A stretch of 64,000 nt of DNA, taken from Henricia sp. BOLD:AAB3569 (lineage: Eukaryota > Echinodermata > Asteroidea > Spinulosida > Echinasteridae). Under the pieces are notes generated by a model, which was given only the letters and a program-made list of their open reading frames with translations, was not told the DNA's origin and searched no databases. Of this stretch, positions 7,909-60,114 are shown piece after piece. A program made the position numbers and the translations under genes. The stretch spans positions 310,001 to 374,000 of the forward strand of contig JBBELK010000994.1 in assembly GCA_037783545.1 (NCBI GenBank), in the 5' to 3' direction. Every line of letters starts with the position of its first letter. Within the stretch, counting starts at the first letter, position 1.

Positions 7909-8430
7909 TCATTTGGCTGTGAAGCGACCGTTGGCATCAGCTTTAAGGCACAACTTCACTTGGGTAGGGTGGGAACTGGCAGGGAACTCGCAGATCACAT
8001 AGTCTTTAACAGAGCATACATTATCATTCATAAGTCCAGACTTCACATGCCATAACTCAACACAGTCTTCATCATCTCCATTGTTATCTGGCTGTCCTGG
8101 TGCCCAGTCGGTGTAGCTGCACTCTTGGCCTTCCCCACCAGCCTGCATCCACTTGCCTTCCACCTCTCTGTCAGTATAGCCGATCCAGACACTGCCACCT
8201 TGAACGCTTCTTGTGAACATCTCCCAGATGAACTGATGTTCTTCTTCTGTGTCAGGAACCACCAAGCCACCTCCCATGCCTGAGCAGGCTGTGTTGGCTT
8301 CATCCCAAGTCATTTTCCGATCCAGCAGTTGGTAATTAAAGCTGCCATATTTCTCTCGACCATTTTGACAGGAGTGAGCATAATTGTAGCAAATTACGAT
8401 GAGTGCAACGTTCATCCACACCAGCTTCAT
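7909..8430 (-). CDS. Secreted C-type lectin, type A, QPD motif
   Basis: A 173-residue protein predicted to be secreted and to bind carbohydrate through one calcium-dependent C-type lectin domain. Residues 1-20 form a hydrophobic signal peptide (MKLVWMNVALIVICYNYAHS). The CTLD spans about 33-149: WDEANTAC at 42-49, WIG at 82-84, QPD at 113-115 and LMND before Cys139. The core Cys are 49, 123, 139 and 147. QPD is the motif that in characterised CTLDs favours galactose-type ligands; specificity here is inference. The position of the usual second N-terminal Cys is occupied by Asn32 and WIGC is WIGY. The tail CLKADANGRFTAK adds Cys161. The start has a favourable CACCATG context shared by all type A copies. 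The protein is full length for the local family, in one exon. Confidence 0.88.
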   Translation of the reverse strand: MKLVWMNVALIVICYNYAHSCQNGREKYGSFNYQLLDRKMTWDEANTACSGMGGGLVVPDTEEEHQFIWEMFTRSVQGGSVWIGYTDREVEGKWMQAGGEGQECSYTDWAPGQPDNNGDDEDCVELWHVKSGLMNDNVCSVKDYVICEFPASSHPTQVKLCLKADANGRFTAK

Positions 8431-8599
8431 GGTGCAAAGGCTTCAGTAATCTAAAACACTTGTACTTTTGTGTTTTTGGAATTTTAAAAAATAGTTATGA
8501 AATTGTTTTTATCACCAAGTGTTGGTTGAAGTCTTGTCAACCAGTGTCACCATACACAGGAAATACATGTAGTCATCTCGATAAAATAAAATTAGTTAT

Positions 8600-8830
8600 A
8601 CCACAAGTACAGTCCTGTCAGATGCTGTGAAAATTTTGATGAAATGTCTTGCACCTTTTCCGAAAACCAAATGGCACTGAATGTTTCTCCATACAATCCA
8701 GTTTTACAACGGTATTAAAAGGGCGGTGTTTTTGATACTCCAGTTTCTCAAATACAGCCCCTGCAACAACCTCAAATCTCCCATTGGCTGTTTCCCTTCT
8801 GTGCTCCCTGCTCTTTACTTCCACTCGGTT
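8600..8830 (-). pseudogene. Decayed copy of the upstream membrane-protein module
   Basis: This stretch upstream of the lectin at 7909 aligns by eye with the conserved block seen at 60240-60730, 31440-31790 and, in open form, 11709-12161. Markers are gcaagacatttcatc, ccatttggttttcgg and the segment with gccaatgggagatttgag. The reading frame of the 11709 ORF is not preserved and its middle part is missing. A 68-codon frame (8618-8824) survives but is judged to be chance. Confidence 0.5.
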
Positions 8831-9797
8831 GAAAATTTAAAAAAAATCACAAAAATGCTTTTGATGTATTGATTCTTGCATCCACTTGCCAAAAGTGGGT
8901 GGGGAGGAGCTTGGGGGAGTGTTTTTCTCCTAGAATTTCATTATTGGCTCCCGCAACCACTTTGTGTTTGACTTATAGAGCATATGATTTTGCAGACGTA
9001 CGTTTCTGTGTGAAGGTTGAAAACTAAATTGTATCAAAGAAACTGATATTAAAATTTTACAATATGCACACCACTATGCTATTTATCAGGAAATTGCAAT
9101 TTTTGTTCGCTTCACCAATCCAGTAGAGAGATATTGTTAAACTCTTTACCAGGCAGTTTTGCCTTCTGTAAATGTCAAGGCTGTATGGGCAACTTGAGCT
9201 CAAAATATTTGTGCATAACTGGAGTCAAGCAAAGTGTTTGATAAAACCTACATTTGATAAAACAGTATTTGAAAAAAATTAATAAATAGGACTGGCAAAA
9301 TTGTGCAGGGTTTAAAGGTATCAGATCATCTAATTTTGCCAGATGTACATGTAGGTAGTATATTTTGGGTTCCAGGTGGAAAATGGCGGCAAATGCGAAA
9401 TATTTGTGTTACCTTTAAAATCAACTTCTTCTTATTGCTCATTGTATCACTTTATTTCTTTGACAATTCCTTATCTTTGTGAAGGATTTAGCAAGAAAAC
9501 AAGTGGCTGATAAAAACTGACTAAAAACCTTTGTCCCTGTTTGATGAACACCCACAGTCTAGCTGCACTTTACAACTGCTTACATCATCTGAATAATCTC
9601 TATTGATTTCTACATATTCATAAGCTGTATATATATATTTTTAAGCTCTTTAGACATGTAAATATTTTTTCCTTATTGATTCTAAACTAGGCACATGAAA
9701 ATTTCTCTAAAATTCTTTGCCCAACACTATATTAACAATTTAAATTTGTTTTTCAAGTCAACGATACACAGTACAGTCGGGTCATTCTATATGAAGA
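8831..9797. other. Lectin-cassette flanking sequence, no gene recognised
   Basis: It contains blocks that recur beside most lectin copies, such as catatgattttgcagacgta with cgtgtctgtgtgaaggttg, and ccaggcagttttgccttct. These mark the edges of old duplicated cassettes. No coding function was recognised. Confidence 0.5.
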
Positions 9798-10290
9798 TGG
9801 GATACGGTGTCTCCTGTTAGGCACCTTTCAATTGTTGCCCCCCGCACTGCCCCACCCCTTTAGGTGGGGATTTGGTCATGATTTTTATGCCCCAGGGTGG
9901 GGATATTGATGCATGCACACAAATCATATTTTTAGCTCACCAGAGCAAAACAAGCAAGTTTTGCCCCCATGGATGTAGACTTGGTTCCAAGTCCGAGATC
10001 CTGTTTTGTTTTCCGTTTCCGATTTTTGAAATGTATGGACAGGGAACTAGTCTATTTTGGTTCAGAATCTAGTCTATTTCTGAACCGAAATAGACTAGTT
10101 CCCTGTCCATACATTTCAAAAATCGAAAACGGAAAACAAAACAGGATCTCGGACTTGGAACCAAGTCTACCATGGATGGGGATTTTGTCTAGTGAAAAGT
10201 GACAATCCCCACCTCTAAGGTGGACAGCCCAGGGGGAGGGGTGTGGGAAACAATTGATAGGTGCATTACATCGGAGACCTTATTATCCCA
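9798..10290. mobile_element. Nested fold-back elements
   Basis: An outer pair of imperfect inverted repeats (left ggtgtctcctgttaggcacc near 9806; right ending ggtgcattacatcggagacc near 10279) encloses an almost perfect inner palindrome at 9967-10175. The inner arms start ccatggatgtagacttggtt and meet around 10070. The interior of the inner unit has no spacer of note, so it would form a very long hairpin. No transposase is present. Confidence 0.75.
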
Positions 10291-11036
10291 TTTTTGGCAA
10301 TTTCAATCAATTTATTGATGTGTACAAGTAGCTCAAAAATGCAAACCACAGTTAGCTGCCTTTTTGTAAGGACTTCATGCATTGAAATCTTGTTTCCATA
10401 ATAACCAGTCATTGAATGCTGCGTCTTAATAGTTTGCAGGCAATACAATTCGCTACAGAAACTAATCGTGTTACTCCTTGTCAATTGTAAGCGATATCGA
10501 TATTGCTTCGATGGTCATGTGTGGGGATAAGATTACGTTTGCTACCAGTAGTCTTCTTAACGAACCAAACGCATTCCCTTTCTTTAATTTTCATCCATTG
10601 AATTGGCAAGGTTATTTTCTGCCTATGATTAAATTCGTGTTGTTTCTAATCACGTTTTCTATCAGCAATACGTTTTGCAGTCAATCTATTCAGATTGTTA
10701 ATGCAACTCACAATGTGATACTGACACAACACTTCCTCCTCATTTTCATTCTCTACTATTAGGCATCGGTTTTAATTGTCAATTTTTGACGTGAGGCTTT
10801 TAAAAAAAATTAAGTACAAACAGTTTCAAGTAGTATCATTTAAAGGAGCGTGCATCTTTCTACTGAACACACTTTGAGCAATTTTATCCACTAGTCTGTT
10901 GTAGTGCAGAAATCCCCAACGCGAGTGTCCAGTGTTTGCCTTTTGCATTACTGCAGACATCCTTAAATGGTGATTGAGTTGAATAAGCATGCTTTCCAGT
11001 CAGTACCTTTTCAGTCATGTTAATGAGACTGGTCAT
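10291..11036. other. Lectin-cassette flanking sequence
   Basis: It holds recurring cassette blocks, for example the segment around gattacatttgct and aacgaaacgcaatccc that reappears near 17890, 23500 and, inverted, 12250-12330. No gene was recognised. Confidence 0.45.
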
Positions 11037-11543
11037 TCATTTGGTTGTGAAGCGACCATTGGCATCGGCCTTCAAGCAGAACATCTGTGAACTGGCAGGG
11101 AACTCACAGATCACATACAATTGAGCATCACATTCAGCATCATCCATGCGACCAGACCACTTAGGCCATAAATAAACACAGTCTTGACCACTTCCCCAGT
11201 TATTTGGCCGTTCCGGTGCCCAGTTGAGGTAGCTGCACTCTTGGCCTTCCCCACCAGCCTGCATCCACTTGCCTTCCTCCTCTCTGTCAGTACAGCCGAT
11301 CCAGACTCTGCCATCTTGAACACTTCTTGTAAACATCTCCCAGATGAACTGATGTTGTTGGTGAGATTCAGGAACCACCAAGCCACCTCCCATGTCAGAG
11401 CAGGTTGCGTTGGCTTCATCCCAAGTCATTTTCCGATCCAGCAGTTGGTGAGAGCTACCATATTTTTCTCGACCAGTTTGACAAGAGTTAGCATAATTGT
11501 AGGAAATTATGATGAGTGCAACGTTCATCCACACCAGCTTCAT
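11037..11543 (-). CDS. Secreted C-type lectin, type A, ERPN variant
   Basis: A 168-residue secreted CTLD protein. The signal peptide is residues 1-20. The CTLD has WDEANATC at 41-48, WIGC at 81-84, core Cys 48, 122, 138 and 146, and GRMDD at 131-135. The ligand motif position reads ERPNN (111-115) instead of PGEPNN, so the Glu that normally helps hold calcium is shifted one residue and Arg is inserted before PN. Calcium and sugar binding may be altered. The first N-terminal Cys (21) is kept but its usual partner is lost (SSHQLLD). The tail is the short form SSQMFCLKADANGRFTTK. The ORF at 11709-12161 lies 165 bp upstream on the same strand. Confidence 0.87.
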   Translation of the reverse strand: MKLVWMNVALIIISYNYANSCQTGREKYGSSHQLLDRKMTWDEANATCSDMGGGLVVPESHQQHQFIWEMFTRSVQDGRVWIGCTDREEEGKWMQAGGEGQECSYLNWAPERPNNWGSGQDCVYLWPKWSGRMDDAECDAQLYVICEFPASSQMFCLKADANGRFTTK

Positions 11544-16335: not shown

Positions 16336-16440
16336 TTCTATTGGCTGTGAAGCGATTATTGGCATCAGCTTTAAGGCAGAACTTTACTGGGGTAGGATGG
16401 GAACTGGTAGGGAACTCACATATCACAAACTGTGTAGGAA
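16336..16440 (-). pseudogene. C-type lectin 3'-end fragment
   Basis: The minus strand encodes a damaged version of the lectin tail (ICEFP..SHPTPVKFCLKADANN-like) just beyond the end of the TTAA MITE. Everything 5' of this tail is missing. It is followed by another partial TTAA-MITE end and then the pseudogene at 16621. Confidence 0.65.
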
Positions 16441-16620: not shown

Positions 16621-17115
16621 TCATTTGGTTGTGAAGCGACCGTTGGCATCAGCTTTCAAGCAGAACTTTACTGGGGTAGGATAGGAACTGGCAGGGAACT
16701 CGTAGATCACATAGTTTTTATGGGAACATTGGTCATCATTCACATTTCCATATCTTATGCCATATCTCAGCACACCCTTGATCCCCTTTCTCGTTATTTG
16801 GCTGTCCTGGTGCCCTTGGCCTTTCCCACCAGCCTGCATCCACTTGCCTTCCTCCTCTGTCAATAAAACCGATCCAGACACTGCCATATTGAATAATTGC
16901 TGTGACATCTCCCAAATGAATTGATGTTCTTCCTCTGTGTCAGGAACCACCAAGCCACCTCTCATGCCTGAGCAGGCTGTGTTGGCTTTATCCCAAGACA
17001 TGGTCAGATCCATCAGTTGGTAGCAAGAACCATTAAATGCTTCTTGACCAGGCTTACAGGGTTGGGCTTGGACCCATGAAGCCACAGTCGGCACACTGAA
17101 CCAAAGCAGCATCAT
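16621..17115 (-). pseudogene. C-type lectin, type B, pseudogene with compensating frameshifts
   Basis: The frame is open for 164 codons, so it looks intact, but alignment with other copies shows decay. A 1-nt loss after WEM and a 2-nt loss before EEGK put about 17 residues in the wrong frame, destroying WIGCTD. A 19-nt deletion after GKGQ removes ECSYLNW and shifts the ligand loop out of frame until NDDQC. The last core Cys is Tyr (VIYEF). The signal peptide MMLLWFSVPTVASWVQAQ and the QPCKPGQEAFNGSCYQL start are preserved. The product would lack a foldable CTLD core. The alternative, a new protein, is unlikely. Confidence 0.8.
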
Positions 17116-21272: not shown

Positions 21273-21454
21273 TCATTTGGTTGTGAAGCGACCATTGGCA
21301 TCGGCTTTCAAGCAGAAATTTACTGGGGTAGGATGGGAACCAGCAGGGAACTCACAGATCACATAGTTTTTCTGAGAACATCCGTCATCATTCACAGTTC
21401 CAGACCAATTCCACAACTCGACACAGGCTTGATCCCCTTCCTGGTTATTTGGCT
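21273..21454 (-). pseudogene. Orphan 3' half of a type B C-type lectin
   Basis: The minus strand encodes the lectin end from NQEGDQACVELWNWSG, TVNDDGCSQ and VICEFPAG to the stop codon, closely matching the 3' end of the lectin at 28776. The match stops abruptly at 21454, inside the ligand loop, where unrelated T-rich DNA begins. The missing 5' half is explained if the upstream part now belongs to the chimeric lectin at 21642. Confidence 0.75.
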
Positions 21455-21641: not shown

Positions 21642-22148
21642 TTATTTGGTTGTGAAGCGACCATTGGCATCGGCCTTCAAGCAGAACATCTGTGAACTGG
21701 CAGGAAACTCGCAGATCACATACAATTGAGCATCACATTTAGTATCATCCATGCGTCCAGACCACTTATGCCATAACGTAGCACAGTCTTGACCACTTCC
21801 AAAGTCATTTAGCCGTCCTAGTCCCCAGTTGAGGTAGCTGCACTCTTGGCCTTCCCCACCAGCTTGCATCCACTTGCCTTCCTCCTCTCTGTCAGTACAG
21901 CCGATCCAGACACTACCATATTGAACACTAATTGTGAACATCTCCCAGATAAACTGATGTTCTTGGGGAGATTCAGGAACCGCCAAGCCACCTCCCATGT
22001 CTGAGCAGGCTCTGTTGGCTTTATCCCAATTCATGGTCAGATCCAGCAGTTGGTAGCAAGAACCATCAAATGCTTCTTGACCAGGCTTACAGGGTTGGGC
22101 TTGGACCCATGAAGCCATAGTCAGCACACTGAGCCAAATCAGCATCAT
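21642..22148 (-). CDS. Secreted C-type lectin, chimeric B/A, GRLN variant
   Basis: A 168-residue secreted CTLD protein. The start is placed at MMLIWLSVLTMASWVQAQ, the shared type B signal peptide, although the frame is open 14 codons further upstream. The N-terminal Cys pair 20/31 is kept, with core Cys 48, 122, 138 and 146 plus 84, 103 and 155. The ligand motif reads GRLND (111-115), lacking the Glu/Gln and Pro of EPN/QPD, so classical calcium-dependent sugar binding is doubtful. The N-terminal half is type B, while the end (DDTKCDAQLYVICEF, SSQMFCLKADANGRFTTK) and the 3' flank are type A. A type B 3' half lies orphaned at 21273-21454. A possible poly(A) signal (AATAAA, minus strand) is at 21514-21519. 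Confidence 0.85.
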   Translation of the reverse strand: MMLIWLSVLTMASWVQAQPCKPGQEAFDGSCYQLLDLTMNWDKANRACSDMGGGLAVPESPQEHQFIWEMFTISVQYGSVWIGCTDREEEGKWMQAGGEGQECSYLNWGLGRLNDFGSGQDCATLWHKWSGRMDDTKCDAQLYVICEFPASSQMFCLKADANGRFTTK

Positions 22149-35204: not shown

Positions 35205-35215
35205 CTAATATATAT

Positions 35216-38880: not shown

Positions 38881-39011
38881 GGTGCAAGAGCTTCAGTAAT
38901 CTACAACACTTGTGGTTTTGTTTCCGGATTCCTGCAAGTTTCAAGAAATTATTTTGGTTGAAATCTTATCGGCCAGTGTCAACAAGAAATAGTTATTTCG
39001 ATGAGATATAC

Positions 39012-39372
39012 CACCAAGTGCAGTCCTGTCGGATGCTGTGAAAACTTTGATAAAAATTAATGTCTGGCACCTTTTCCAAAAACCAAACGGCACATAATTG
39101 GTCTCCACAATGTATTTAAATATCCTTGAATTGCTACAACAAACAGAGTGGTGGGAAACTTGTCCGTGAAAGTCTTTCGTTGAAATGATTTGTGGTCTGC
39201 GAACAGCAAGTTTTATCCAGCTTTTACAACAACAAAGGGCAGTGTTTTTGATACTATTCCAGTTTCTCTGATGCAACCCCTTGCAACAACCTCAAATCTC
39301 CCATTGGCTGTTTCCCTTCTGTTCACCCTGCTCTTTACTTCCACTCGGTTGAAAATAAAAAAAGTCATGGGT
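39012..39372 (-). pseudogene. Decayed membrane-protein module (unit 2)
   Basis: Same content as 31440-31800, with an identical 111-codon frame at 38941-39276. Confidence 0.5.
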
Positions 39373-40371: not shown

Positions 40372-41115
40372 TTAAAGGGAGAGGTAACACTTGTCGGAAT
40401 ATATGGACAAATTTGATCCAAAATTATTTTAGAATTCTGAGGCACTTGTTTTCAAAGTCGGGCAGCACAATTTATTTTGATGATTGACTTTGCAACAAAT
40501 CTGGCTTTGTGCTGCAGCATATTTATTATTATTATTATTTATTTCTGTTACTGAAACCAAGGATTCCTCAATAGTGCCCATTGCACTGTCGCTCGCGCGA
40601 CAAGCGTGAGGAAACCCATGATGAATTAGATACGGCCAGAGACACCGGGGAATCCCTCCCCTTCTCTTCACGAAGAAATGCTCTGGGATCTTTAAAGTGC
40701 GTTACTTTACCTAACACACTGGACCAACGGCTTTACATCCCTTCCGAAGGATGGCGAAAGTGTGATTAAGTGCCTTTCTCAAGAGCACAAGTGTCACAAC
40801 CTTTTTCCTGCTCTTTCATGTAAACCACAAGTTGCTACCACTGCAACACGTGACATAATCAAACTCTGTTGTAACCTGACTCGTCATGCTCTCTTGAATA
40901 GGAGGGCCAAACTGAAAAATGTGGCAGTTTATATAAAGCATATTTAAAAGCAAATAAAAATTGTACTGATTTTTTTCTTCAAATGGTCAAAATGGATCTT
41001 GGTTGAAAATATAAACATCCACATGTGTCATTAATTTAACAAACTTTGCTATGCTTGCTTGTGATATCCTGGAGAATTAAGCAATCTTCTAGAAAAATGT
41101 TTCCTCTCCCTGTAA
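40372..41115. mobile_element. TTAA MITE with nested SINE, unit 2
   Basis: Paralogue of 32826-33567 with the same ends. The nested inverted SINE fragment lies at about 40520-40790. Confidence 0.75.
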
Positions 41116-41129
41116 TGAGATTTGTTGTT

Positions 41130-41238
41130 CATTGGCATCAGCTTTCAAGCAGAACTTCACTGGGGTAGGATGGGAACTGGCAGGGAACTCGCAGATAACA
41201 TAGTTTTTGCATAAACATGACACATCATGGACAGTTCC
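41130..41238 (-). pseudogene. Type B lectin pseudogene, 3' fragment (unit 2)
   Basis: Same as 33581-33709, but 18 bp covering the last codons and the stop codon are deleted. Confidence 0.7.
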
Positions 41239-41251
41239 AAAGATGTGTCAT

Positions 41252-41624
41252 GGGGGATACCGTGGCCGAGCGGTTTAGGTCATTGACTCGCAATCATAGG
41301 TGAAAACTTGGGGTTGCAGGTTCGAACCTCCCCACGGCTACGGTACCTGTGCCCTTGGGCAAGGCACTCAACCACACCTGCTCCATCCTTCGGAAGGGAT
41401 GTAAAGCCGTTGGTCCAGTGTGTTAGGTAATGGTAACGCACTCTAAAGATCCCAGAGCATTCTTTCGTGAAGAGCAAGGGGATCATCCCCGGTCTCTCTG
41501 GCCATTTCTAATTCTAATTCTTCATGGGTTTCCTCACGCTTGCGAGTGACAGTGCAATGAGCACTATTGAGGAATCCTTGGTATGAATACCAGAAAGAAA
41601 TAATAATAATAATAATAATAAAAG
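41252..41624 (+). mobile_element. Full-length tRNA-derived SINE, unit 2
   Basis: It starts gggggataccgtggccgagc. An internal RNA polymerase III promoter is visible: box A tggccgagcgg and box B ggttcgaacct about 55 bp later, as in class II (Leu/Ser-like) tRNA genes with a long variable arm. A body (cttgggcaaggcactcaacc, ccttcggaagg, taaagatcccagagc) and a (TAA)n tail follow. It is absent in unit 1, where ccaaagtttcaac is continuous, so it inserted after unit 1 separated. It is not a functional tRNA gene. Confidence 0.88.
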
Positions 41625-41653
41625 TTTCAACAAAATGTGAAAGGTGTTATAGA

Positions 41654-41803
41654 CCGTATCGAATAGCCGCTATTTCATGGGACAGTTTCTTTGTTCCTTG
41701 AGGACATGCATGGTTGCAACATAATGTGCTTTCATTGTTGAACGGTTGAGGTAACAAAAGGTGCCCCACGAAATGGCAGCTATTCGATATAGTCTATACA
41801 TGA
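41654..41803. mobile_element. TATAGACCGTATCG fold-back MITE, unit 2
   Basis: Paralogue of 33737-33887 with the same ends. Confidence 0.75.
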
Positions 41804-42625
41804 TGGCCTTGTTGACATGTAATGACCGAACTACTTTTTACATAAATTATTCATGACACATTATAACCTCTGTGAAGGATTCAAGATGAATACAAGTGAC
41901 AATTGACCAAAAACCTCAATCCATGCTTGAAAAACACCACCAATAGCTGTATTTATCAATTAACAGTTAATAAACATTGATAATCTCTATTTTGACTACG
42001 ACCAAGGCACAATAGTTTTTCTATCAAACCTTTTTGTTCGAAACTAATAGATTAAACATTGAGTAATGAATTTGGGTTGAATACAATTGACAGTTAACCA
42101 ATTCTTCCTTGACAAACACCACTCAGATGCACTTCACAACCAATATTACCATTTAGAAAATCTCCTGATTTATTATAACAAAAGCATATGGTTTCTGTTA
42201 AATATTTTATCCAACACCCTGTTTCAGAAATAATATATATTAATTAAAAGAAATTTTTGTGGACAACTATTTTTAGTGGACATGTTTTTATTCTAAGGAT
42301 ACAGTTACAAAGCATAGAATCCACAACTTGTGATAAAGTTGAATGATAGCACGCATGTTATTACAATTTAGTTAGAATTACTCTGACTGAATCTTGTTCC
42401 AGTTATGATCAGTCCTCAAGTGCCGTGTCTTCATAACGCACTGTCAAACTAAGCCACTCCCACAGATTCAAATGGGTCAGCGTTGAAGCCTGATGGAAAC
42501 AAAATCAATACATTTCATTTGTTTTCAATCTTCATCCACCAGTGGATTGGCAGGTTCATTCCGTATTTATTACCATGACTGCCATGGACTATACTAATAT
42601 ATATGGACTATACTAATATATATAC

Positions 42626-42834
42626 TTGTGAACATCTCCCAGATGAACTGATGTTCTTTGAGAGATGCAGGAACCACCAAGCCACCTTTCATGTCTGAGC
42701 AGGCTCTGTTGGCTTCATCATAAGTCATGGTCAGATCCAGCAGTTGGTAGCAAGAACCATAAAATGCTTCTTGACCAGGGTTGGGCTTGGACCCATGAAG
42801 CCACACTCGGCACACTGATTCAAATCAGCATCAT
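42626..42834 (-). pseudogene. Type B lectin pseudogene, 5' fragment (unit 2)
   Basis: Same structure and same 8-nt deletion as 35216-35426. The TA-rich edge is uninterrupted here, which shows the empty site of the 490-bp insertion of unit 1. Confidence 0.8.
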
Positions 42835-43777
42835 GTTGACTGATAAATCTCTAAAGTAAATCTCAAATCAAATCAATCTTCCTAAAAAGTCTCTTGATCT
42901 CTAAATTGTATTTGTGTGCACGTTTTCCTGTCTGTGTTGTCCTAAACAATTTGTAGTTATTGTTATTAACACATCAGTCTGTTCCACTTGTCCGAGTACT
43001 ATAAGAATCCCACATTAACACTTCAGACATGCAGTTGCAGCACATTATCTGTTGCATTGACAGTGTTGAGTATATCGTGTCGGTTTTTATTGAAAGAAAA
43101 AAGGTTTTAGGTTTTTCTGTGGTTTTCTTTCCTTTGTATGGTGGTTGCTGGTCTTCCGTTAACATATTCATTGCCAAACTAGTGTTCATGCATAGAGTTA
43201 GTACAATGTTGGAGTAATCCAAGTCATTAGAATTTTAGCTACAGGATCTATCAAATTCTTGACCATGTTACCCGAGTGAATTCAACCCACAATATTTCTG
43301 GCAGTTTATCGGCTCATCAAACTGTAGGTTGCATTAACAAGCAGTCTTTGTGGAGCTGCAAACCATTCCATGTTGCCTTTCCAGAAGTCTTCTTTTACAT
43401 GTTCCATGTGTCTGCATTGAGATCTTGTTCCAGTTATAATCAGTCTTTAAATACTGCGTCTTCATAATGCACCTATCAAATGCACGCATTGACGAGCCTC
43501 TGCCTTTAATATGTTAAGTGGCAGTAAGTATGAAAAACAATCACATAGCCACAGTCTTGTATCAATGTGGATGTCTTGTTTTTGTGACTCACAAATGGAC
43601 AGGTTTTATTTTACAAAGATTGTCACAAAGCACAGATTCCACACATGGTTGAGTCGAATTATAGACGGATACAGTTGCAGAGCGTAGACTCCACAACTTT
43701 AATATGTTGAGAGGCAGTGAATATGCTTTCAATCTCCAATCAGTTCCTCTTTGTATCATGTTAATGAGACTGGTCAT

Positions 43778-44287
43778 TCATTTGGTTGTGAAGCGACCAT
43801 TGGCATCGGCCTTCAAGCAGAACATCTGTGAACTGGCAGGGAACTCGCAGATCACATACAATTGAGCATCACATGTATCATCATCCATGCGTCCAGACCA
43901 CTCATGCCATAACATAGCACAGTCTTGACCACTTCGCCCGTTATTCGGCTCTCCTGGTGCCCAGTTGATGTAGCTGCACTTTTGGCCTTCTCCACCAGCC
44001 TGCATCCACTTACCTTCCTCCTCTCTGTCAGTACAGCCGATCCAGACGCTGCCATCTTGAACACTACTTGTGAACATCTCCCAGATGAACTGATGTTCTT
44101 GGAGAGATTCAGGAACCACCAAGCCACCTCCCATGTCTGAGCAGGTTGTGTTGGCTTCATCCCAAGTCATTTTCCGATCCAGCAGCTGGTACCAAGAGCT
44201 GCCATATTTTTCTCCACCATTTTGACAGGAGTGAGCGTAATTGTAGGAAATTATGATGAGTACAACGTTCATCCACACCAGCTTCAT
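43778..44287 (-). CDS. Secreted C-type lectin, type A, EPN motif (unit 2)
   Basis: A 169-residue secreted CTLD protein with signal peptide 1-20. Core Cys are 49, 123, 139 and 147, with additional Cys at 85, 104 and 156, and a lone N-terminal Cys21 whose usual partner is Trp (SSWYQLLD). The ligand loop is GEPNN (112-116) with RMDD before Cys139. EPN is the motif associated with mannose/GlcNAc-type binding in characterised CTLDs; binding here is inferred. A possible poly(A) signal (AATAAA, minus strand) is at 43605-43610. It is nearly identical to the gene at 51192. Confidence 0.9.
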   Translation of the reverse strand: MKLVWMNVVLIIISYNYAHSCQNGGEKYGSSWYQLLDRKMTWDEANTTCSDMGGGLVVPESLQEHQFIWEMFTSSVQDGSVWIGCTDREEEGKWMQAGGEGQKCSYINWAPGEPNNGRSGQDCAMLWHEWSGRMDDDTCDAQLYVICEFPASSQMFCLKADANGRFTTK

Positions 44288-45782
44288 GGTGCACAGGCTT
44301 CAGTAATCTACAACACTTGTCCTTTTGTTTACGGAATTTTGCAAGTTTCATGAAATTATTTTTATTTTTTTTCACCAAGTGTTGGTTGCAGTCTTGTCGA
44401 CCAGTGTTACCATACACATGACATACTAGTACATGAAGTCATCTCGATAAGATAAAATTAGTTATACCAGGAGTACAGTCCTGTCACACATTGACACTTC
44501 AGACGGTTGCAGAACATTATCTGTTGCATTGATAGTGTTGATTATATTCTGTCGGTTTTTATTGAAAGAAAAAGGGTTTTAGGTTTTCTGTGGTTTTTTT
44601 TCCTTTGTATGGATGTCTTCCATGAAAACATTCATTGTCAAACTGGTGTTTAATGCAGAGAGTCAGTACAATGCTGGTGAAATCCAAGTCATTAGAATTT
44701 TATCTGCAGGATTTATACAATTATTGACCAAGTTACCCGAGTGAATTCAGACCACAGATAGAAACCCACAATTCTGGCTGTTTATCGGCTCATCAAACTG
44801 TAGGTTGCATTAACAAGCAGTCTTTGTCGAGCTGCAAACCATTCCGTGTTGCCTTTCCAGAAGTCTTCTTGTACACTGTTCCATGTGCCTGCATTGAGAT
44901 CTTGTTTTAGTTATGATCAGTCCTCAAATGCTGTCTTCAAAATGCACTGGCAAAATAAGCTGCTCTTACAGATTTAAATGGGTCAGCGTTGAAATCTGAT
45001 GGAAACAAAATCAATAAATTTGATTTGTTTTCAATCTTCATCCAGTGGATTGGCAGGTTCATTCCGTATTTATTACCAAGACTGCCTTGGACTAATTTAG
45101 TGCTGTCAATCAGTGCATTCAGTTTGGTTTTTCAATCAACAAACTAGTTTGGCATTACTTGCTAATTGAAATATCAACGTCAATCAATCTATTGAATTGT
45201 TGAAGCAGCACACAAAGTGAAAACAACCACAAAGTCACTGTCCTGCATCAGTGATTTTATTTCATCTTCATCCAGTGGATTGGCAGGTTTTCACCTTGGA
45301 ATAATTTTGTGCTGCCAATCCATAAGCACACATGCCGTTTGGATTCTCTTTCTTTCTTTCAGTGTCAATCAATCTATTGAAGTGTACAACTCAAAAAAGT
45401 GACAAATAGCCACGGGTTTTTTATTCAATCTTCATCCAGTAGATTGGCAGGTTCAATCCGTAATTATTACCATGACTGTGTAGGAATAACTTGGTGGTGT
45501 CAATATACATGTGTGCATGCAGTTTGGTTCTCGATGAACAATCTAATGAAGTATTAAAGCAGCTCAAAAGTGAACAAATGAAACATTCCCACATGTCTTG
45601 CATCAGTGTGGATCCATAACAAAATACTGAAATTTTAAGAGCAGTTCACTTTAGCTTTTGTGAGCTGTGAGCAGATAACCTTTCTGATATTGTCACCTAA
45701 AATGATGCTGTTACTTGTTACACGGAATTTGAATCAATCTCCAATCAGTACCTCCTTGTATCATGTTAAAGAGACTGGTTCT

Positions 45783-46282
45783 TTATTTGGTTGTGAAGCG
45801 ACCATTGGCATCAGCTTTCAAGCAGAACTTCACTGGGGTAGGATGGGAACTGGCAGGGAACTCGCAGATGACATACATGTACTTTGCAAGAGAGCAGCTA
45901 ATATCATTCATAAGACCAGAACTGGTATATCCGAACGCAAGACAATCTTCACTGTTAAGATCATTTGGTTCTCCGTCTGCCCAGTTGAAGTAGCTGCACT
46001 TTTGGCCTTCCCCACCAGCCTGCATCCAATTGTCTTCCTCCTCTCTGTCAGTACAGCCGATCCAGAGGCTGCGATTCTTGTGAACATCCCCCAGATGAAC
46101 CAATGTTCTTCTTCTGTGTCAGGAACCACCAAGCCACCTCCCATGTCTGAGCAGGCTGTGTTGGCTTCATCCCAAGTCATTGTCTGATCCAACAGTTGGT
46201 AACGAGAGCTGCCATTTTTTTGACAGGAGTGAGCGTAATTGTAGGAAATTATGAGTGCAACGTTCATCCACACCAGCTTCAT
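45783..46282 (-). pseudogene. Type A lectin with 10-nt deletion (unit 3)
   Basis: It carries the same deletion and the same two-frame structure as 38381-38880, and its translated parts are identical to that copy. The lesion therefore arose before the unit 2/3 duplication. Confidence 0.85.
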
Positions 46283-46413
46283 GGTGCAAGAGCTTCAGTA
46301 ATCTACAACACTTGTGGTTTTGTTTCCGGATTCCTGCAAGTTTCAAGAAATTATTTTGGTTGAAATCTTATCGGCCAGTGTCAACAAGAAATAGTTATTT
46401 CGATGAGATATAC

Positions 46414-46774
46414 CACCAAGTGCAGTCCTGTCGGATGCTGTGAAAACTTTGATAAAAATTAATGTCTGGCACCTTTTCCAAAAACCAAACGGCACATAAT
46501 TGGTCTCCACAATGTATTTAAATATCCTTGAATTGCTACAACAAACAGAGTGGTGGGAAACTTGTCCGTGAAAGTCTTTCGTTGAAATGATTTGTGGTCT
46601 GCGAACAGCAAGTTTTATCCAGCTTTTACAACAACAAAGGGCAGTGTTTTTGATACTATTCCAGTTTCTCTGATGCAACCCCTTGCAACAACCTCAAATC
46701 TCCCATTGGCTGTTTCCCTTCTGTTCACCCTGCTCTTTACTTCCACTCGGTTGAAAATAAAAAAAGTCATGGGT
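46414..46774 (-). pseudogene. Decayed membrane-protein module (unit 3)
   Basis: Same content as 31440-31800. The 111-codon frame at 46343-46678 is identical to the other units. Confidence 0.5.
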
Positions 46775-47775
46775 GGTGAGGTGGTTGCAGAGTCCTTCCT
46801 TGTACATGTATTGATTCTTGCATCCACTTGCCAAAAGTGGGTGGGGAGGAGCTTGGGGGGAGTGTTTTTCTCCTAGAATTTCATTATTGACTACTGCAAC
46901 CACTTTGTGTTTGACTTATGAGCATATGATTTTGCAGACGTACGTGTCTGTGTGAAGGTTGAAAACTCATTGTGTTGAAAAAAATTGAAAATAAAATTTT
47001 ACAATATGCGCACCAATGTGCCAATTTTTTCGCTTCACCAATCCAGTAGAGATATATTTTTGAACTCTTTACCAGGCAGTTTTGCCTTCTCTAAATGTCA
47101 AGGCTGTATATGGGCAACTTGAGCTCAAAATACTTGTGTATGACTGGTGTCAAGCAAAATGTTTGAAACCTACCTACATAAAAATTGATAAAACAGTATT
47201 TGAAAAAAGAAAAGAAATAGGACCGGCACAACTGCACAAGGTTTAAAAGGTATCAGATCATTTAATTTTGCATGTGCATAGTATATTCAGGATTCCAGGT
47301 GGAAAATGACAGCAAATGCAAAATGTTTGTGTTACCTTTAAAATCAACTTCTTCTTTTTGCTCATTGTATCAGTTTATTTCTTTGACAATTTCTTATCTT
47401 ATATGTAAAGGATTTAGCAAGTAGCTATTGAAAACTGATTAAAAACATTTGTTTCTGTTTGATGAACTGCACTTTACAACTGCTTACAACATATGAATAA
47501 TCTGTATTGATTTACAGAAGCTATTTAGACATGTACATTTATATAATTTCTCATTGATTCTAAACGCGACACAATAAAATGTGTGTACTTCTGCTTCTAA
47601 AACTATATTAAAAATTTAAATAAATTTACATTTTATTTCCTGCCAAACAGTAACTACTACTTTTGGTAACTACCGTGAATTTGCTTTGAGTAAACGGGTT
47701 TTCATTGCACAGATACAGCACAAAGCATGTATACAATTCAGTTTAGAATGTATTTTTATCTCCTCTTGTATCATG

Positions 47776-48519
47776 TTAAAGGGAGAGGTAACACTTGTCA
47801 GAATATATGGACAAATTTGATCCAAAATTATTTTAGAATTCTGAGGCACTTGTTTTCAAAGTCGGGCAGCACAATTTATTTTGATGATTGACTTTGCAAC
47901 AAATCTGGCTTTGTGCTGCAGCATATTTATTATTATTATTATTTATTTCTGTTACTGAAACCAAGGATTCCTCAATAGTGCCCATTGCACTGTCGCTCGC
48001 GCGACACGCGTGAGGAAACCCATGATGAATTAGATACGGACAGAGACACCGGGGAATCCCTCCCCTTCTCTTCACGAAGAAATGCTCTGGGATCTTTAAA
48101 GTGCGTTACTTTACCTAACACACTGGACCAACGGCTTTACATCCCTTCCGAAGGATGGCGAAAGTGTGATTAAGTGCCTTTCTCAAGAGCACAAGTGTCA
48201 CAACCTTTTTCCTGCTCTTTCATGTAAACCACAAGTTGCTACCACTGCAACACGTGACATAATCAAACTCTGTTGTAACCTGACTCGTCATGCTCTCTTG
48301 AATAGGAGGGCCAAACTGAAAAATGTGGCAGTTTATATAAAGCATATTTAAAAGAAAATAAAAATTGTACTGATTTTTTTCTTCAAATGGTCAAAATGGA
48401 TCTGGGTTGAAAATATAAACATCCACATGTGTCATTAATTTAACAAACTTTGCTATGCTTGCTTGTGATATCCTGGAGAATTAAGCAATCTTCTAGAAAA
48501 ATGTTTCCTCTCCCTGTAA
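47776..48519. mobile_element. TTAA MITE with nested SINE, unit 3
   Basis: Paralogue of 32826-33567. The nested inverted SINE lies at about 47924-48195. Confidence 0.75.
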
Positions 48520-48533
48520 TGAGATTTGTTGTT

Positions 48534-48642
48534 CATTGGCATCAGCTTTCAAGCAGAACTTCACTGGGGTAGGATGGGAACTGGCAGGGAACTCGCAGAT
48601 AACATAGTTTTTGCATAAACATGACACATCATGGACAGTTCC
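48534..48642 (-). pseudogene. Type B lectin pseudogene, 3' fragment (unit 3)
   Basis: Same 18-bp loss of the terminal codons as in unit 2. Confidence 0.7.
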
Positions 48643-48655
48643 AAAGATGTGTCAT

Positions 48656-49026
48656 GGGGGATACCGTGGCCGAGCGGTTTAGGTCATTGACTCGCAATCA
48701 TAGGTGAAAACTTGGGGTTGCAGGTTCGAACCTCCCCACGGCTACGGTACCTGTGCCCTTGGGCAAGGCACTCAACCACACCTGCTCCATCCTTCGGAAG
48801 GGATGTAAAGCCGTTGGTCCAGTGTGTTAGGTAATGGTAATGCACTCTAAAGATCCCAGAGCATTCTTTCGTGAAGAGCAAGGGGATCATCCCCGGTCTC
48901 TCTGGCCATTTCTAATTCTAATTCTTCATGGGTTTCCTCACGCTTGCGAGTGACAGTGCAATAAGCACTATTGAGGAATCCTTGGTATGAATACCAGAAA
49001 GAAATAATAATAATAATAATAATAAA
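48656..49026 (+). mobile_element. Full-length tRNA-derived SINE, unit 3
   Basis: Paralogue of 41252-41624 at the identical position, differing by a few substitutions. Confidence 0.88.
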
Positions 49027-49055
49027 AGTTTCAACAAAATGTGAAAGGTGTTATA

Positions 49056-49205
49056 GACCGTATCGAATAGCAGCTATTTCATGGGACAGTTTCTTTGTTC
49101 CTTGAGGACATGCATGGTTGCAACATAATGTGCTTTCATTGTTGAACGGTTGAGGTAACAAAAGGTGCCCCACGAAATGGCAGCTATTCGATATAGTCTA
49201 TACAT
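49056..49205. mobile_element. TATAGACCGTATCG fold-back MITE, unit 3
   Basis: Paralogue of 33737-33887. Confidence 0.75.
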
Positions 49206-50043
49206 GATGGCCTTGTTGACATGTAATGACCGAACTACTTTTTACATAAATTATTCATGACACATTATAACCTCTGTGAAGGATTCAAGATGAATACAAG
49301 TGACAATTGACCAAAAACCTCAATCCACGCTTGAAAAACACCACCAATAGCTGTATTTATCAATTAACAGTTAATAAACATTGATAATCTCTATTTTGAC
49401 TACGACCAAGGCACAATAGTTTTTCTATCAAACCTTTTTGTTCGAAACTAATAGATTAAACATTGAGGTTCACATTATTTACATTAGTAATGAATTTGGG
49501 TTGAATACAATTGACAGTTAACCAATTCTTCGTTGACAAACACCACTCAGATGCACTTCACAACCAATATTACCATTTAGAAAATCTCCTGATTTATTAT
49601 AACAAAAGCTTTCTGTTAAATATTTTATCCAACACCCTGTTTCAGAAATAATATATATTAATTAAAAGAAATGTTTGTGGACAACTATTTTTAGTGGACA
49701 TGTTTTTATTGTAAGGATACAGTTACAAAGCATAGAATCCACAACTTGTGATAAAGTTGAATGATAGCAAGCATGTTATTACAATTTAGTTAGAATTACT
49801 CTGACTGAATCTTGTTCCAGTTATGATCAGTCCTCAAGTGCCGTGTCTTCATAACGCACTGTCAAACTAAGCCACTCCCACAGATTCAAATGGGTCAGCG
49901 TTGAAGCCTGATGGAAACAAAATCAATACATTTCATTTGTTTTCAATCTTCATCCACCAGTGGATTGGCAGGTTCATTCCGTATTTATTACCATGACTGC
50001 CATGGACTATACTAATATATATGGACTATACTAATATATATAC

Positions 50044-50252
50044 TTGTGAACATCTCCCAGATGAACTGATGTTCTTTGAGAGATGCAGGAACCACCAAGC
50101 CACCTCCCATGTCTGAGCAGGTTGTGTTGGCTTCATCCCAAGTCATGGTCAGCTCCAACAGTTGGTAGCAAGAACCATCAAATGCTTCTTGACCAGGGTT
50201 GGGCTTGGACCCATGAAGCCACACTCGGCACACTGATTCAAATCAGCATCAT
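50044..50252 (-). pseudogene. Type B lectin pseudogene, 5' fragment (unit 3)
   Basis: Same structure and 8-nt deletion as 35216-35426 and 42626-42834. Confidence 0.8.
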
Positions 50253-51191
50253 GTTGACTGATAAATCTATAAAGTAAATCTCAAATCAAATCAATCTTCC
50301 TAAAAAGTCTCTTGATCTCTAAATTATATTTGTGTGCACGTTTTCCTGTCTGTGTTGTCCTAAACAATTTGTAGTTATTGTTATTAACACATCAGTCTCT
50401 TCTACTTGTCCGAGTACTATAAGAATCCCACATTAACACTTCAGACAGTTGCAGCACATTATCTGTTGCATTGACAGTGTTGAGTATATCGTGTCGGTTT
50501 TTATTGAAAGAAAAAAGGTTTTAGGTTTTTCTGTGGTTTTCTTTCCTTTGTATGGTGGTTGCTGGTCTTCCGTTAACATATTCATTGCCAAACTGGTGTT
50601 CATGCGTAGAGTTAGTACAATGTTGGAGTAATCCAAGTCATTAGAATTTTAGCTACAGGATCTATCAAATTCTTGACCATGTTACCCGAGTGAATTCAAC
50701 CCACAATATTTCTGGCAGTTTATCGGCTCATCAAACTGTAGGTTGCATTAACAAGCAGTCTTTGTGGAGCTGCAAACCATTCCATGTTGCCTTTCCAGAA
50801 GTCTTCTTTTACATGTTCCATGTGTCTGCATTGAGATCTTGTTCCAGTTATAATCAGTCTTTAAATACTGCGTCTTCATAATGCACCTATCAAATGCGCG
50901 CATTGACGAGCCTCTGCCTTTAATATGTTAAGTGGCAGTAAGTATGAAAAACAATCACATAGCCACAGTCTTGTATCAATGTGGATGTCTTGTTTTTGTG
51001 ACTCACAAATGGACAGGTTTTATTTTACAAAGATTGTCACAAAGCACAGATTCCACACATCGTTGAGTCGAATTATAGACGGATACAGTTGCAGAGCGTA
51101 GACTCCACAACTTTAATATGTTGAGAGGCAGTGAATATGCTTTCAATCTCCAATCAGTTCCTCTTTGTATCATGTTAATGAGACTGGTCAT

Positions 51192-51701
51192 TCATTTGGT
51201 TGTGAAGCGACCATTGGCATCGGCCTTCAAGCAGAACATCTGTGAACTGGCAGGGAACTCGCAGATCACATACAATTGAGCATCACATGTATCATCATCC
51301 ACGCGTCCAGACCTCTCATGCCATAACATAGCACAGTCTTGACCACTTCGCCCGTTATTCGGCTCTCCTGGTGCCCAGTTGATGTAGCTGCACTCTTGGC
51401 CTTCTCCACCAGCCTGCATCCACTTGCCTTCCTCCTCTCCGTCAGTACAGCCGATCCAGACGCTGCCATCTTGAACACTACTTGTGAACATCTCCCAGAT
51501 GAACTGATGTTCTTGGAGAGATTCAGGAACCACCAAGCCACCTCCCATGTCTGAGCAGGTTGTGTTGGCTTCATCCCAAGTCATTTTCCGATCCAGCAGC
51601 TGGTACCAAGAGCTGCCATATTTTTCTCCACCATTTTGACAGGAGTGAGCGTAATTGTAGGAAATTATGATGAGTACAACGTTCATCCACACCAGCTTCA
51701 T
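51192..51701 (-). CDS. Secreted C-type lectin, type A, EPN motif (unit 3)
   Basis: A 169-residue secreted CTLD protein and near twin of 43778. The differences are confined to the surface around the ligand loop: TDG for TDR at 87-89, GQE for GQK near 103, HER for HEW near 129, and RVDD for RMDD. GEPNN at 112-116 and all Cys are kept. A possible poly(A) signal is at 51019-51024 (minus strand). With 43778 it forms the youngest pair of intact genes in the array. Confidence 0.9.
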   Translation of the reverse strand: MKLVWMNVVLIIISYNYAHSCQNGGEKYGSSWYQLLDRKMTWDEANTTCSDMGGGLVVPESLQEHQFIWEMFTSSVQDGSVWIGCTDGEEEGKWMQAGGEGQECSYINWAPGEPNNGRSGQDCAMLWHERSGRVDDDTCDAQLYVICEFPASSQMFCLKADANGRFTTK

Positions 51702-52530
51702 GGTGCACAGGCTTCAGTAATCTACAACACTTGTCCTTTTGTTTACGGAATTTTGCAAGTTTCATGAAATTATTTTTATTTTTTTTCACCAAGTGTTGGT
51801 TGCAGTCTTGTCGACCAGTGTTACCATACACATGACATACTAGTACATGAAGTCATCTCGATAAGATAAAATTAGTTATACCAGGAGTACAGTCCTGTCA
51901 CACATTGACACTTCAGACAGTTGTAGAACATTATCTGTTGCATTAGTGTTGATTATATTCTGTCGGTTTTTATTGAAAGAAAAAGGGTTTTAGGTTTTCT
52001 TTGGTTTTGTTTCCTTTGTATGGATGTTGCTAGTCTTCCATGAAAACATTCATTGCCAAACTGGTGTTTAATGCAGAGAGTCAGTACAATGCTGGTGAAA
52101 TCCAAGTCATTAGAATTTTATCTGCAGGATTTATACAATTATTGACCAAGTTACCAGAGTGAATTCAGACCACAGATAGAAACCCACACTTCTGGCTGTT
52201 TATCGGCTCATCAAACTGTAGGTTGCATTAACAAGCAGTCTTTGTCGAGCTGCAAACCATTCTGTGTTGCCTTTCCAGAAGTCTTCTTGTACACTGTTCC
52301 ATGTGCCTGCATTGAGATCTTGTTTTAGTTATGATCAGTCCTCAAATGCTGTGTCTTCAAAATGCACTGGCAAAATAAGCTGCTCTTACAGATTCAAATG
52401 GGTCAGTGTTGAAGTCTGATGAAAACAAAATCAATAAATTTCAATTGTTTTCAATCTTCATCAAGTGGATTCATTCCGTATTTATTACCATGACTGCCTT
52501 GGACTAATTTAGTGCTGTCAATCAGTGCAT

Positions 52531-53290: not shown

Positions 53291-53291
53291 C

Positions 53292-59308: not shown

Positions 59309-59423
59309 TTAAAGGCAGAGGCTCGCAATGCGCGCGTGAGGCCAAATTTGTGCCACGAAATACGCTGTGTATTTCTGTCATGAATTTGGCCTCGTGCGCG
59401 CATTGACGAGCCTCTGTCTTTAA
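59309..59423. mobile_element. TTAAAGGCAGAGGCTCG fold-back MITE
   Basis: Left ttaaaggcagaggctcgcaa pairs with right gacgagcctctgtctttaa. An inner pair is gaggccaaatt / aatttggcctc. One-ended remnants occur at about 36069, 43488 and 50897. Confidence 0.8.
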
Positions 59424-59445
59424 TATGTTGAGTGGCAGTGAATAT

Positions 59446-59545
59446 AGGGGATGTGATGTTCCGGTTTTTCCCGGAACTTTCTTTTGTCTCATTGGTTTGT
59501 GACAAAGATTACTCCGGGAAAAACCGGAACAAAATCACATCCCTG
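59446..59545. mobile_element. AGGGATGTGAT fold-back MITE with empty sites in paralogues
   Basis: Left aggggatgtgatgttccggt pairs with right accggaacaaaatcacatcc. Sister cassettes have an uninterrupted gtgaatatgctttcaatc at the same place (36308, 43720, 51133), so this insertion is private to the 59-kb cassette. Confidence 0.8.
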
Positions 59546-59613
59546 GAATGTGCTTTCAATCACAATCTCCAATCAGTTCCTCTTTGTATCATCATGTTAA
59601 TGAGACTGGTCAT

Positions 59614-60114
59614 TCATTTGGTTGTGAAGCGACCATTGGCATCGGCCTTCAAGCAGAACATCTGCGAATTGGCAGGGAACTCGCAGATCACATACAATTG
59701 AGCATCACATTTAGCATCGTCCAAACGTCCAAACCACACATGAGCACAGTCTTGACCACCTCCCCCGTTATTCGGCTCTCCTGGTGCCCAGTTGAGGTAG
59801 CTGCACTCTTGGCCTTCCCCACCAGCCTGCATCCACTTGCCTTCCACCTCTCTGTCAGTACAGCCGATCCAGACACTGCCATCTTGAACACTTCTTGTAA
59901 ACATCTCCCAGATGAACTGATGTTCTTCTTCTGTGTCACGAACCGCCAAGTCACCTCCCATGTCTGAGCAGGCTGTGTTAGCTTCATCCCAAGTCATCGT
60001 CCGATCCAGCAGTTGGTAACAAGAGCTGCCATATTTTTCTTGACCATTTTGACAGGAGTGAGCGTAATTGTAGGAAATTATGATGAGTGCAACATTCATC
60101 CACATCAGCTTCAT
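59614..60114 (-). CDS. Secreted C-type lectin, type A, EPN motif, with N-terminal Cys pair
   Basis: A 166-residue secreted CTLD protein starting MKLMWMNVALIIISYNYAHS. Unlike the other type A genes it keeps both N-terminal Cys (21 and 32, SSCYQLLD), as in long-form CTLDs. The ligand loop is GEPNN (112-116). Three residues are missing between CAHVW and GRLDD compared with paralogues, so the loop before the last core Cys is shorter. The tail is the short SQMFCLKADANGRFTTK. With its Cys pattern and standard motif it may be closest to the ancestral type A state. Confidence 0.9.
   Translation of the reverse strand: MKLMWMNVALIIISYNYAHSCQNGQEKYGSSCYQLLDRTMTWDEANTACSDMGGDLAVRDTEEEHQFIWEMFTRSVQDGSVWIGCTDREVEGKWMQAGGEGQECSYLNWAPGEPNNGGGGQDCAHVWFGRLDDAKCDAQLYVICEFPANSQMFCLKADANGRFTTK

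What the first reader, a model, noticed from the sequence alone, without database searches (positions are those of the whole stretch)
7909..60114. Lectin array with a near-constant scaffold but a variable ligand motif
Across eight intact copies the CTLD frame (WDEAN.xC, WIG, GKWMQAGGEGQ, ND/DD-x-x-C, VICEF) is almost fixed, while the calcium/sugar motif reads QPD (7909), ERPN (11037), GRLN (21642), KLPD (28776), EPS (30802) and EPN (43778, 51192, 59614). In known CTLDs this loop sets ligand class, so changes concentrated here suggest diversification of recognition, or loss of calcium-dependent binding in some members. This is the strongest candidate for an undescribed recognition system in the window.
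Basis: partly seen in the sequence, partly recalled or inferred. Interest (0 to 1): 0.8.

Follow-up and report, generated by a model that had tools for sequence, protein, structure and literature searches.

The report
Sea-star-like lectin gene family, varied loop
The window holds part of a large family of probably secreted sugar-binding proteins (C-type lectins) in what looks like a sea star, in which the calcium/sugar-binding loop is diversified by selection and by exchange between copies while the rest stays alike; it is a clear new example of a known kind of germline repertoire.

Summary
Observation confirmed. Eight intact single-exon lectin genes lie where stated with the stated motifs; the array also holds 4 broken full-length copies and 8 fragments. 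They belong to a genome-wide family: 76 of 82 long matches have no stop (counted by eye). The mitochondrial code points to an echinoderm.

Interpretation partly supported. On 73 copies with a tree per segment, allowing beta>alpha improves the loop by 2dL 62.0 (14 null simulations of the loop: at most 11.8; other segments 0 to 9.7). But synonymous divergence is high there too, loop distances are bimodal and loop and upstream trees conflict, so blocks are exchanged between copies; pooled pairwise loop pN/pS is 0.74-1.03. Most variation keeps calcium chemistry: exactly one acid at 113/115 in 66 of 73, at 121/135 in 68 of 73. Three window copies (RPN, RLN, LPD) probably lost the site.

New: part of the 'constant scaffold' (codons about 81-110) is constant at synonymous sites too (between-clade pS 0.05-0.09 against 0.24-0.67 in other segments), cause unresolved. 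Binding, expression and immune role are inferred.

The parts
7909..8430 (-). intact CTLD gene, QPD; WIGY instead of WIGC; E121/N135
11037..11543 (-). intact CTLD gene, RPN at 113-115 (reader: ERPN); Q121/D135
16346..16429 (-). C-terminal CTLD fragment
16624..17115 (-). frameshifted CTLD copy, loop scrambled (no stop in the long frame)
21276..21452 (-). CTLD fragment, loop onward
21642..22148 (-). intact chimeric CTLD gene: 5' part like C1351 copies, 3' part like 43778/11037; RLN, Q121/D135
28776..29297 (-). intact CTLD gene, LPD, Q121/N135 (probably no calcium site 2)
30802..31308 (-). intact CTLD gene, EPS; E121/N135
33584..33709 (-). 3' piece of a CTLD copy probably interrupted by about 1.5 kb
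35216..35426 (-). 5' piece, probably of the same interrupted copy
36366..36872 (-). CTLD copy with one TAA, EPN; short loop stretch (VYLWPK) like 11037
38384..38880 (-). frameshifted copy of the 30802 type
41131..41238 (-). 3' fragment, second unit
42624..42834 (-). 5' fragment, second unit
43778..44287 (-). intact CTLD gene, EPN; Q121/D135; reference for residue numbers
43961..44044 (-). anchor: codons 82-109 of copy 43778, little variation across the family at synonymous sites too
43856..43960 (-). long loop, codons 110-144 of copy 43778: the diversified segment
45786..46282 (-). frameshifted copy of the 30802 type, same translated pieces as 38384
48535..48642 (-). 3' fragment, third unit
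50042..50252 (-). 5' fragment, third unit
51192..51701 (-). intact CTLD gene, EPN; 4 nonsynonymous and 1 synonymous differences from 43778
59614..60114 (-). intact CTLD gene, EPN; Q121/D135
31274..52332 (.). three tandem units of about 7.4 kb (repeat starts 31274, 38846, 46248)

Best explanation
This is part of a lineage-expanded family of small, probably secreted C-type lectins in an echinoderm (probably a sea star). Each window gene is one exon: a hydrophobic leader, one long-form CTLD, and a tail of about 20 residues that looks like the stump of a second, cysteine-rich part kept by distant relatives. Shown: the array has grown by tandem duplication and loses copies by stops, frameshifts and interruption; 5' and 3' parts have been recombined between copies; in site models the long loop that carries calcium site 2 has an excess of nonsynonymous change at many codons; the presumed calcium ligands change mostly in charge-balanced ways (E-N, E-S or Q-D at 113/115; E-N or Q-D at 121/135). 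Inferred: the copies are expressed, secreted, calcium- and sugar-binding, and together give a germline repertoire of different glycan specificities (immune or mucosal recognition), with a few members that have lost calcium binding.
For: Family size and intactness. Stop without a GT donor beside it, and longer relatives L092-L096 that read on at that point. Loop on its own tree: 2dL 62.0 against a null maximum of 11.8 in 14 simulations; 30.3 without codons 116-120; halves 33.4 and 17.3; 14 of 35 loop codons have P(beta>alpha)>0.95. Loop omega 1.33, 2dL 8.1 against omega 1. Cys123, Cys139, Pro114 and Asp136 strongly conserved. Charge balance 66 of 73 and 68 of 73, Fisher 2e-11 and 2e-8, still 8e-6 and 3e-4 on 37 loop clusters. 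Mosaicism: upstream and loop+tail alignments reject each other's tree (delta lnL 792 and 539; AU 1e-87 and 9e-44); bimodal loop distances in 32 pairs; chimera 21642.
Against: No expression, binding or population data. Pooled pairwise loop pN/pS is 0.74, 0.77 and 0.97 (12, 20 and 32 pairs chosen on whole-gene distance) and 0.91 and 1.03 (15 and 32 pairs chosen on upstream distance), so the selection claim rests on site models, which recombination inside the loop can inflate; my simulations had none. dS is high in the loop as well. Some codons outside the loop also pass 0.95: 3 in 37-81, 4 in 82-109, 2 in the tail. Leader called by eye; no usable structure model. The link of charge balance to calcium rests on recalled ligand positions for residue 121.
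Confidence: 0.65

Rival explanations
1. Relaxed or neutral decay: the array is mostly on its way to becoming pseudogenes and the loop is simply unconstrained.
For: 12 of 20 CTLD pieces in the window are broken copies or fragments; overall omega 0.876; pN/pS by segment 0.25 to 1.44 in the 12 closest pairs.
Against: 76 of 82 long matches have no stop (broken copies in pieces are not in that count); tail omega 0.45 and leader/N-terminus 0.72; eight Cys positions kept in 68-73 of 73; charge-balanced ligand changes; loop omega 1.33 rather than 1 (2dL 8.1).
Confidence: 0.12
2. Gene conversion alone: old differences between loops are shuffled as blocks, and the codon-model signal is a recombination artefact without diversifying selection.
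For: Bimodal loop distances, high dS in the loop, tree conflict; pooled loop pN/pS not above 1.03; conversion-like stretch in 36366.
Against: The signal persists on the segment tree and on the two loop halves with a tree each, and is weak or absent in the other segments. Simulations had no recombination inside the loop, so this is not excluded.
Confidence: 0.18
3. Targeted hypermutation of the loop, for example by a mechanism like diversity-generating retroelements, which act on C-type-lectin folds in bacteria (recalled).
For: Variable CTLD loop beside a block that is constant at DNA level.
Against: In 12 of 15 pairs that are at most 0.05 apart upstream the loop is no more than 0.04 apart; 37 of 89 loop differences in 11 pairs do not involve A.
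Confidence: 0.02
4. The loop variation reflects loss of sugar binding and a switch to protein ligands, as in snaclecs.
For: 11037, 21642 and 28776 have R or L at 113; over the five presumed ligand positions 11 of 73 keep only two acids and 1 of 73 keeps one.
Against: 60 of 73 keep exactly three acids; P114 and D136 in 71 of 73 each.
Confidence: 0.08

Closest known systems
C-type lectin domain proteins, canonical long-loop CTLD (Pfam PF00059; surfactant protein D, mannose-binding protein, mannose-receptor CTLDs in the PDB)
   Same: Whole-domain match, conserved Cys, EPN/QPD and a WND-like motif in the expected places
   Different: Cys in place of Leu in WIGL, with a second family-specific Cys (C85 in 72, C104 in 73 of 73); M, V, L or A in place of W before ND
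Snake-venom C-type lectins and snaclecs (PMC6468738, passages read)
   Same: Single CTLD without other domains; the long loop is where subgroups differ; a paper on their accelerated evolution is in its reference list (title only seen)
   Different: Most members here keep E/Q at 113 and P114; echinoderm-like host; no snaclec-type swap loop looked for
Expanded bivalve C-type lectin repertoires (PMC10140915, passages read)
   Same: Lineage-specific expansion; a passage also reports expanded repertoires in some echinoderms
   Different: EPN, QPD and 'gene conversion' do not occur in its main text, so loop exchange and ligand motifs are not its subject
Sp185/333 (SpTransformer) of sea urchins (PMC5103432, PMC5491942; search listing and start of abstract only)
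   Same: Echinoderm, clustered small genes, segmental duplication, rapid diversification
   Different: Two exons by the abstract's start; not a C-type lectin (recalled); not compared by sequence
Conotoxin families with site-specific codon conservation of cysteines (PMC3823881, abstract read)
   Same: Hypervariable stretches beside codon-conserved positions
   Different: Here a block of about 30 codons, while the loop cysteines C123 (42 TGT, 31 TGC) and C139 (25, 47) are not codon-conserved

Membership tests
C-type lectin domain (PF00059) | profile match above curated cut-off | tested here: met
   3 of 3 scanned; all eight window genes found
C-type lectin domain (PF00059) | four core cysteines (49, 123, 139, 147) | tested here: met
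   73, 73, 72 and 73 of 73
Calcium-dependent sugar-binding CTLD | E/Q-P-D/N in the long loop and ND before the next Cys (motifs from PMC6468738 passages) | tested here: inconclusive
   E or Q at 113 in 67, P114 in 71, N or D at 115 in 48, S at 115 in 21, N135 in 60, D135 in 9, D136 in 71 of 73
Calcium-dependent sugar-binding CTLD | measured calcium and sugar binding | not testable with these tools
   needs protein
Snaclec | E/Q-P-D/N missing | tested here: not met
   motif kept in most members
Snaclec | loop-swapped heterodimer | not tested
   no usable structure model
Diversity-generating retroelement target | adenine-specific variation | tested here: not met
   37 of 89 loop differences in 11 pairs lack A
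Germline-diversified immune lectin repertoire | expression in immune cells or on challenge | not testable with these tools
   no transcript data
Echinoderm host | mitochondrial AAA=Asn, ATA=Ile, AGR=Ser, TGA=Trp | tested here: met
   the code is shared with flatworms, and that the AAA sites are Asn and the ATA sites Ile in other animals is recalled; sea star is a recalled resemblance

The most novel reading that the evidence does not exclude
The roughly 90-bp block (codons about 81-110) just upstream of the loop is held constant at DNA level across clades as a homology anchor, so that copies can swap loop-bearing 3' parts by recombination or conversion without breaking the fold: a germline cassette-exchange system for lectin specificity, filtered by selection for intact, charge-balanced calcium sites.
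Probability: 0.15. Interest if true: 0.75.

Novelty: new member of a known kind. Interest (0 to 1): 0.45.

Why it matters
If the lectins are expressed and bind, this is a germline repertoire of about 70 genes in which the calcium/sugar loop is varied on a similar frame: a ready panel for learning how loop sequence sets glycan specificity, and whether E-N/Q-D swaps at both presumed ligand pairs keep calcium. The block beside the loop that is constant at synonymous sites makes a testable case of how a gene family keeps a frame while exchanging a variable part.

Tried and rejected
Structure prediction from the 8 window proteins gave pLDDT 36 and was not used; no fold search was run. Open alternative reading frames over codons 76-112: one other forward frame is open in 89% and one reverse frame in 86% of copies; in three other segments these two frames are open in 4, 11 and 15% and in 33, 3 and 42%, so no overlapping gene is claimed. 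RNA fold of the anchor: z 0.34 to 0.60, nothing. Rfam at gathering scores: 0 matches. Splicing into a second domain: no GT at the stop, and no stretch of the window matches the second part of L092-L096 beyond the CTLD end better than chance.

Conversion against DNA-level constraint for the anchor: 16 sequences were tried as broken copies (three are not clean cases: L016 with a late stop, L106 perhaps a diverged open frame, L103 listed without a stop). Mean anchor distance to the intact copies is 0.065-0.094 in 11 of 16, as among intact copies (mean 0.084, sd 0.027), and 0.108-0.173 in 5 (L105, L106, L104, L091, L103); most broken copies are young, so this does not decide. Shuffling the conserved codons gave as low a 30-codon window in 22 of 1000, so the within-family statistic is modest. 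Some six-codon windows upstream are as low in single comparisons (51-56: 0.06 in one of three; 45-50: 0.09 in one of three), so the block is the longest low stretch, not the only one.

Rows dropped before counts: of 103 frames I set aside 5 distant relatives (L092-L096), 15 frames that failed my start/motif/length filter, among them L038 by the VIC pattern although it looks intact, and 9 duplicates, leaving 74 distinct; frameshifted 16621 was then left out, leaving 73. The 73 still hold copies with altered tails or leaders (such as L016, L031, L067, L069, L073, L079, L080). Searches used 5, 21 and 38 of the 73 as the three groups. Pairs were chosen on whole-gene distance, which favours similar loops; one search chose on the upstream part. 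The AU test used 5000 resamplings and the program warned that this is too few. Library listings were capped (25 of 264, 15 of 106, 20 of 25, 15 of 29, 15 of 18, 15 of 21 shown).
Full report
What is there. The window is C994:310001-374000 of a 740.7-Mb genome. From Met to stop they are 166-173 residues in one frame: a hydrophobic leader (called by eye), a CTLD, and a tail ending DANGRFTTK or close to it. No GT donor stands at the stop. Distant relatives L092-L096 read on at this point into a further cysteine-rich stretch, so the tail looks like a stump. Besides the eight, the array holds 4 broken full-length copies and 8 fragments. Six of these fragments are probably one copy interrupted by about 1.4-1.5 kb and carried along in three 7.4-kb tandem units (the pairing is inferred).

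Host. COX1 was read on C955 (L099; C2104 holds a match of the same score). It has AAA at positions where I recall Asn in other animals, TGA=Trp, AGR=Ser and ATA=Ile: the echinoderm/flatworm code. The protein reminds me of sea stars (recalled). No closer name is claimed.

Family. Searching the genome with one copy scored 150 of 491 candidates. By my count by eye, 82 matches span at least 150 residues at 50% identity or more, on 15 contigs; 76 have no stop. One of the 76 is the scrambled window copy 16624; frameshifted copies that appear as shorter pieces are not in the count. 73 distinct copies went into the codon analysis.

Selection. With one tree, 15 of 173 codons have P(beta>alpha)>0.95, 10 of them among the 35 loop codons. 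Because upstream and loop+tail alignments reject each other's tree, I refitted each segment on its own tree. Omega: codons 3-36 0.72, 37-81 1.00, 82-109 1.10, loop 1.33, tail 0.45. Allowing beta>alpha improves the loop by 2dL 62.0 and the others, in the same order, by 0.0, 9.7, 4.8 and 1.6. Fourteen loop data sets simulated without beta>alpha gave 0.0 to 11.8. Leaving out the gappy codons 116-120 gives 30.3; the two loop halves on their own trees give 33.4 and 17.3. Codons above 0.95 on local trees: 14 of 35 in the loop, 3, 4 and 2 in segments 37-81, 82-109 and tail. Against this: total synonymous divergence is high in the loop too (tree dS 7.9, against 4.8, 4.0, 1.5 and 7.6), and pooled pairwise loop pN/pS is 0.74, 0.77 and 0.97 (12, 20 and 32 pairs chosen on the whole gene) and 0.91 and 1.03 (15 and 32 pairs chosen on the upstream part).

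Exchange. In the 32 pairs at most 0.10 apart upstream, loop distance is 0.00-0.11 in 20 and 0.22-0.43 in 12. In 3 of the 12 the tail is at most 0.05 apart; the clearest, L056/L077, differs 0.26 in the loop but 0.02-0.05 in the upstream coding part, the tail and both flanks. In the other 9 the tail also differs (0.10-0.22). Copy 21642 matches C1351 copy L036 in its 5' part and 43778 in its 3' part (43:2 against 10:44 informative sites; breakpoint, at codons 39/40, chosen afterwards; with other parents at 64/65). Broken copy 36366 follows 43778 at 25 of 26 informative sites up to the loop, then follows 11037 at six in a row. In 28 of 73 copies the nearest upstream relative is not the nearest loop relative and the loop distance to it is more than twice as large.

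Calcium ligands. Motifs 113-115 and 135-136 are those of PMC6468738 (passages); residue 121 as a further ligand is recalled from mannose-binding protein. Exactly one of 113/115 is acidic in 66 of 73 and exactly one of 121/135 in 68 of 73. Both associations hold on 37 loops clustered at 70% identity. D at 135 goes with Q at 121 in 9 of 9; Q at 121 without D is W_28776, and the disrupted copy L026, which is not in the 73, also reads Q with ND. R or L at 113 occurs in 3 of 73, all in this window (11037, 21642, 28776). So most variation looks like a change of sugar class or fine specificity with calcium kept, and three window members probably lost site 2 (inference).

Cysteines. C85 (72 of 73) and C104 (73 of 73) are a candidate family-specific pair; C85 stands where WIGL has Leu. 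Cys at 32 is present in 60 of 73 and absent in five of the eight window copies, leaving C21 perhaps free for dimers (inference).

The constant block. Codons about 81-110 vary little at synonymous sites. Between the C439/C515 copies (5) and window-type copies (21) pS is 0.046, against 0.61, 0.33, 0.57 and 0.37 in the other segments; between C439/C515 and C346/C84/C60 copies (38) 0.052 against 0.35-0.67; between the two large groups 0.094 against 0.24-0.61. Its edges are fairly sharp: codons 75-80 0.25-0.31, 111-116 0.58-0.83, though single six-codon windows upstream are also low in one comparison. Of 106 candidate places in the genome 40 were scored, all 93-100% identical to the block of 43778, and all 40 lie in places that one search lists (compared by eye). 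pN is as low (0.069-0.075), so amino-acid constraint alone does not explain it. Codons are fixed site by site and not by one preferred codon (Gly mostly GGC at 84, GGT at 98, GGG at 99). Conversion, an exchange anchor, or a DNA/RNA-level element remain open; broken copies do not decide.

Known or new. Expanded C-type lectin repertoires are known, in some echinoderms too (PMC10140915, passages). Large germline-encoded immune families in echinoderms are known (PMC13428168, passages; PMC5103432 and PMC5491942, listings). Nine searches of the open library showed me no title on this family or on loop selection in sea star C-type lectins; several listings were capped and most subscription papers are not held, so this is weak. 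I file it as a new member of a known kind, with one unexplained feature.

Noticed in passing
58382-58816: Minisatellite of 20.7 copies of a 21-bp unit; a minus-strand ORF over it reads ISPNVCK repeats.
   Followed up: no
14478, 22722, 29878, 37512, 44914, 56943, 63482: Dispersed direct repeat of at least 300 nt, 65-80% like the 56943 copy, the last copy 100% as printed.
   Followed up: no
35426-33584, 42834-41131, 50252-48535: A lectin pseudogene whose middle seems replaced by about 1.4-1.5 kb, triplicated with the 7.4-kb units; the insert was not identified.
   Followed up: partly
44003-44017: In copy 43778 the anchor reads GAAGGTAAGT, a splice-donor-like string; its twin 51192 has GGC there, and of 64 copies with Gly at 92, 60 have GGC, 2 GGT and 2 GGA.
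   Followed up: partly
11709-12194: Minus-strand ORF of 161 aa with only a sub-threshold Pfam match (Ephrin_lbd, 18.4 bits against 27).
   Followed up: no
61811-62431: Minus-strand ORF of 206 aa without a Pfam match at 0.01; its wording reminds of a retroelement polyprotein (recalled).
   Followed up: no
G000:C955 (L099-L101): Contig with at least three mitochondrial COX1 copies 16221 bp apart, probably an assembly artefact or circular read-through.
   Followed up: no
L092-L096: Distant relatives with a CTLD followed in the same frame by a cysteine-rich second part; the identity of that part was not tested.
   Followed up: partly
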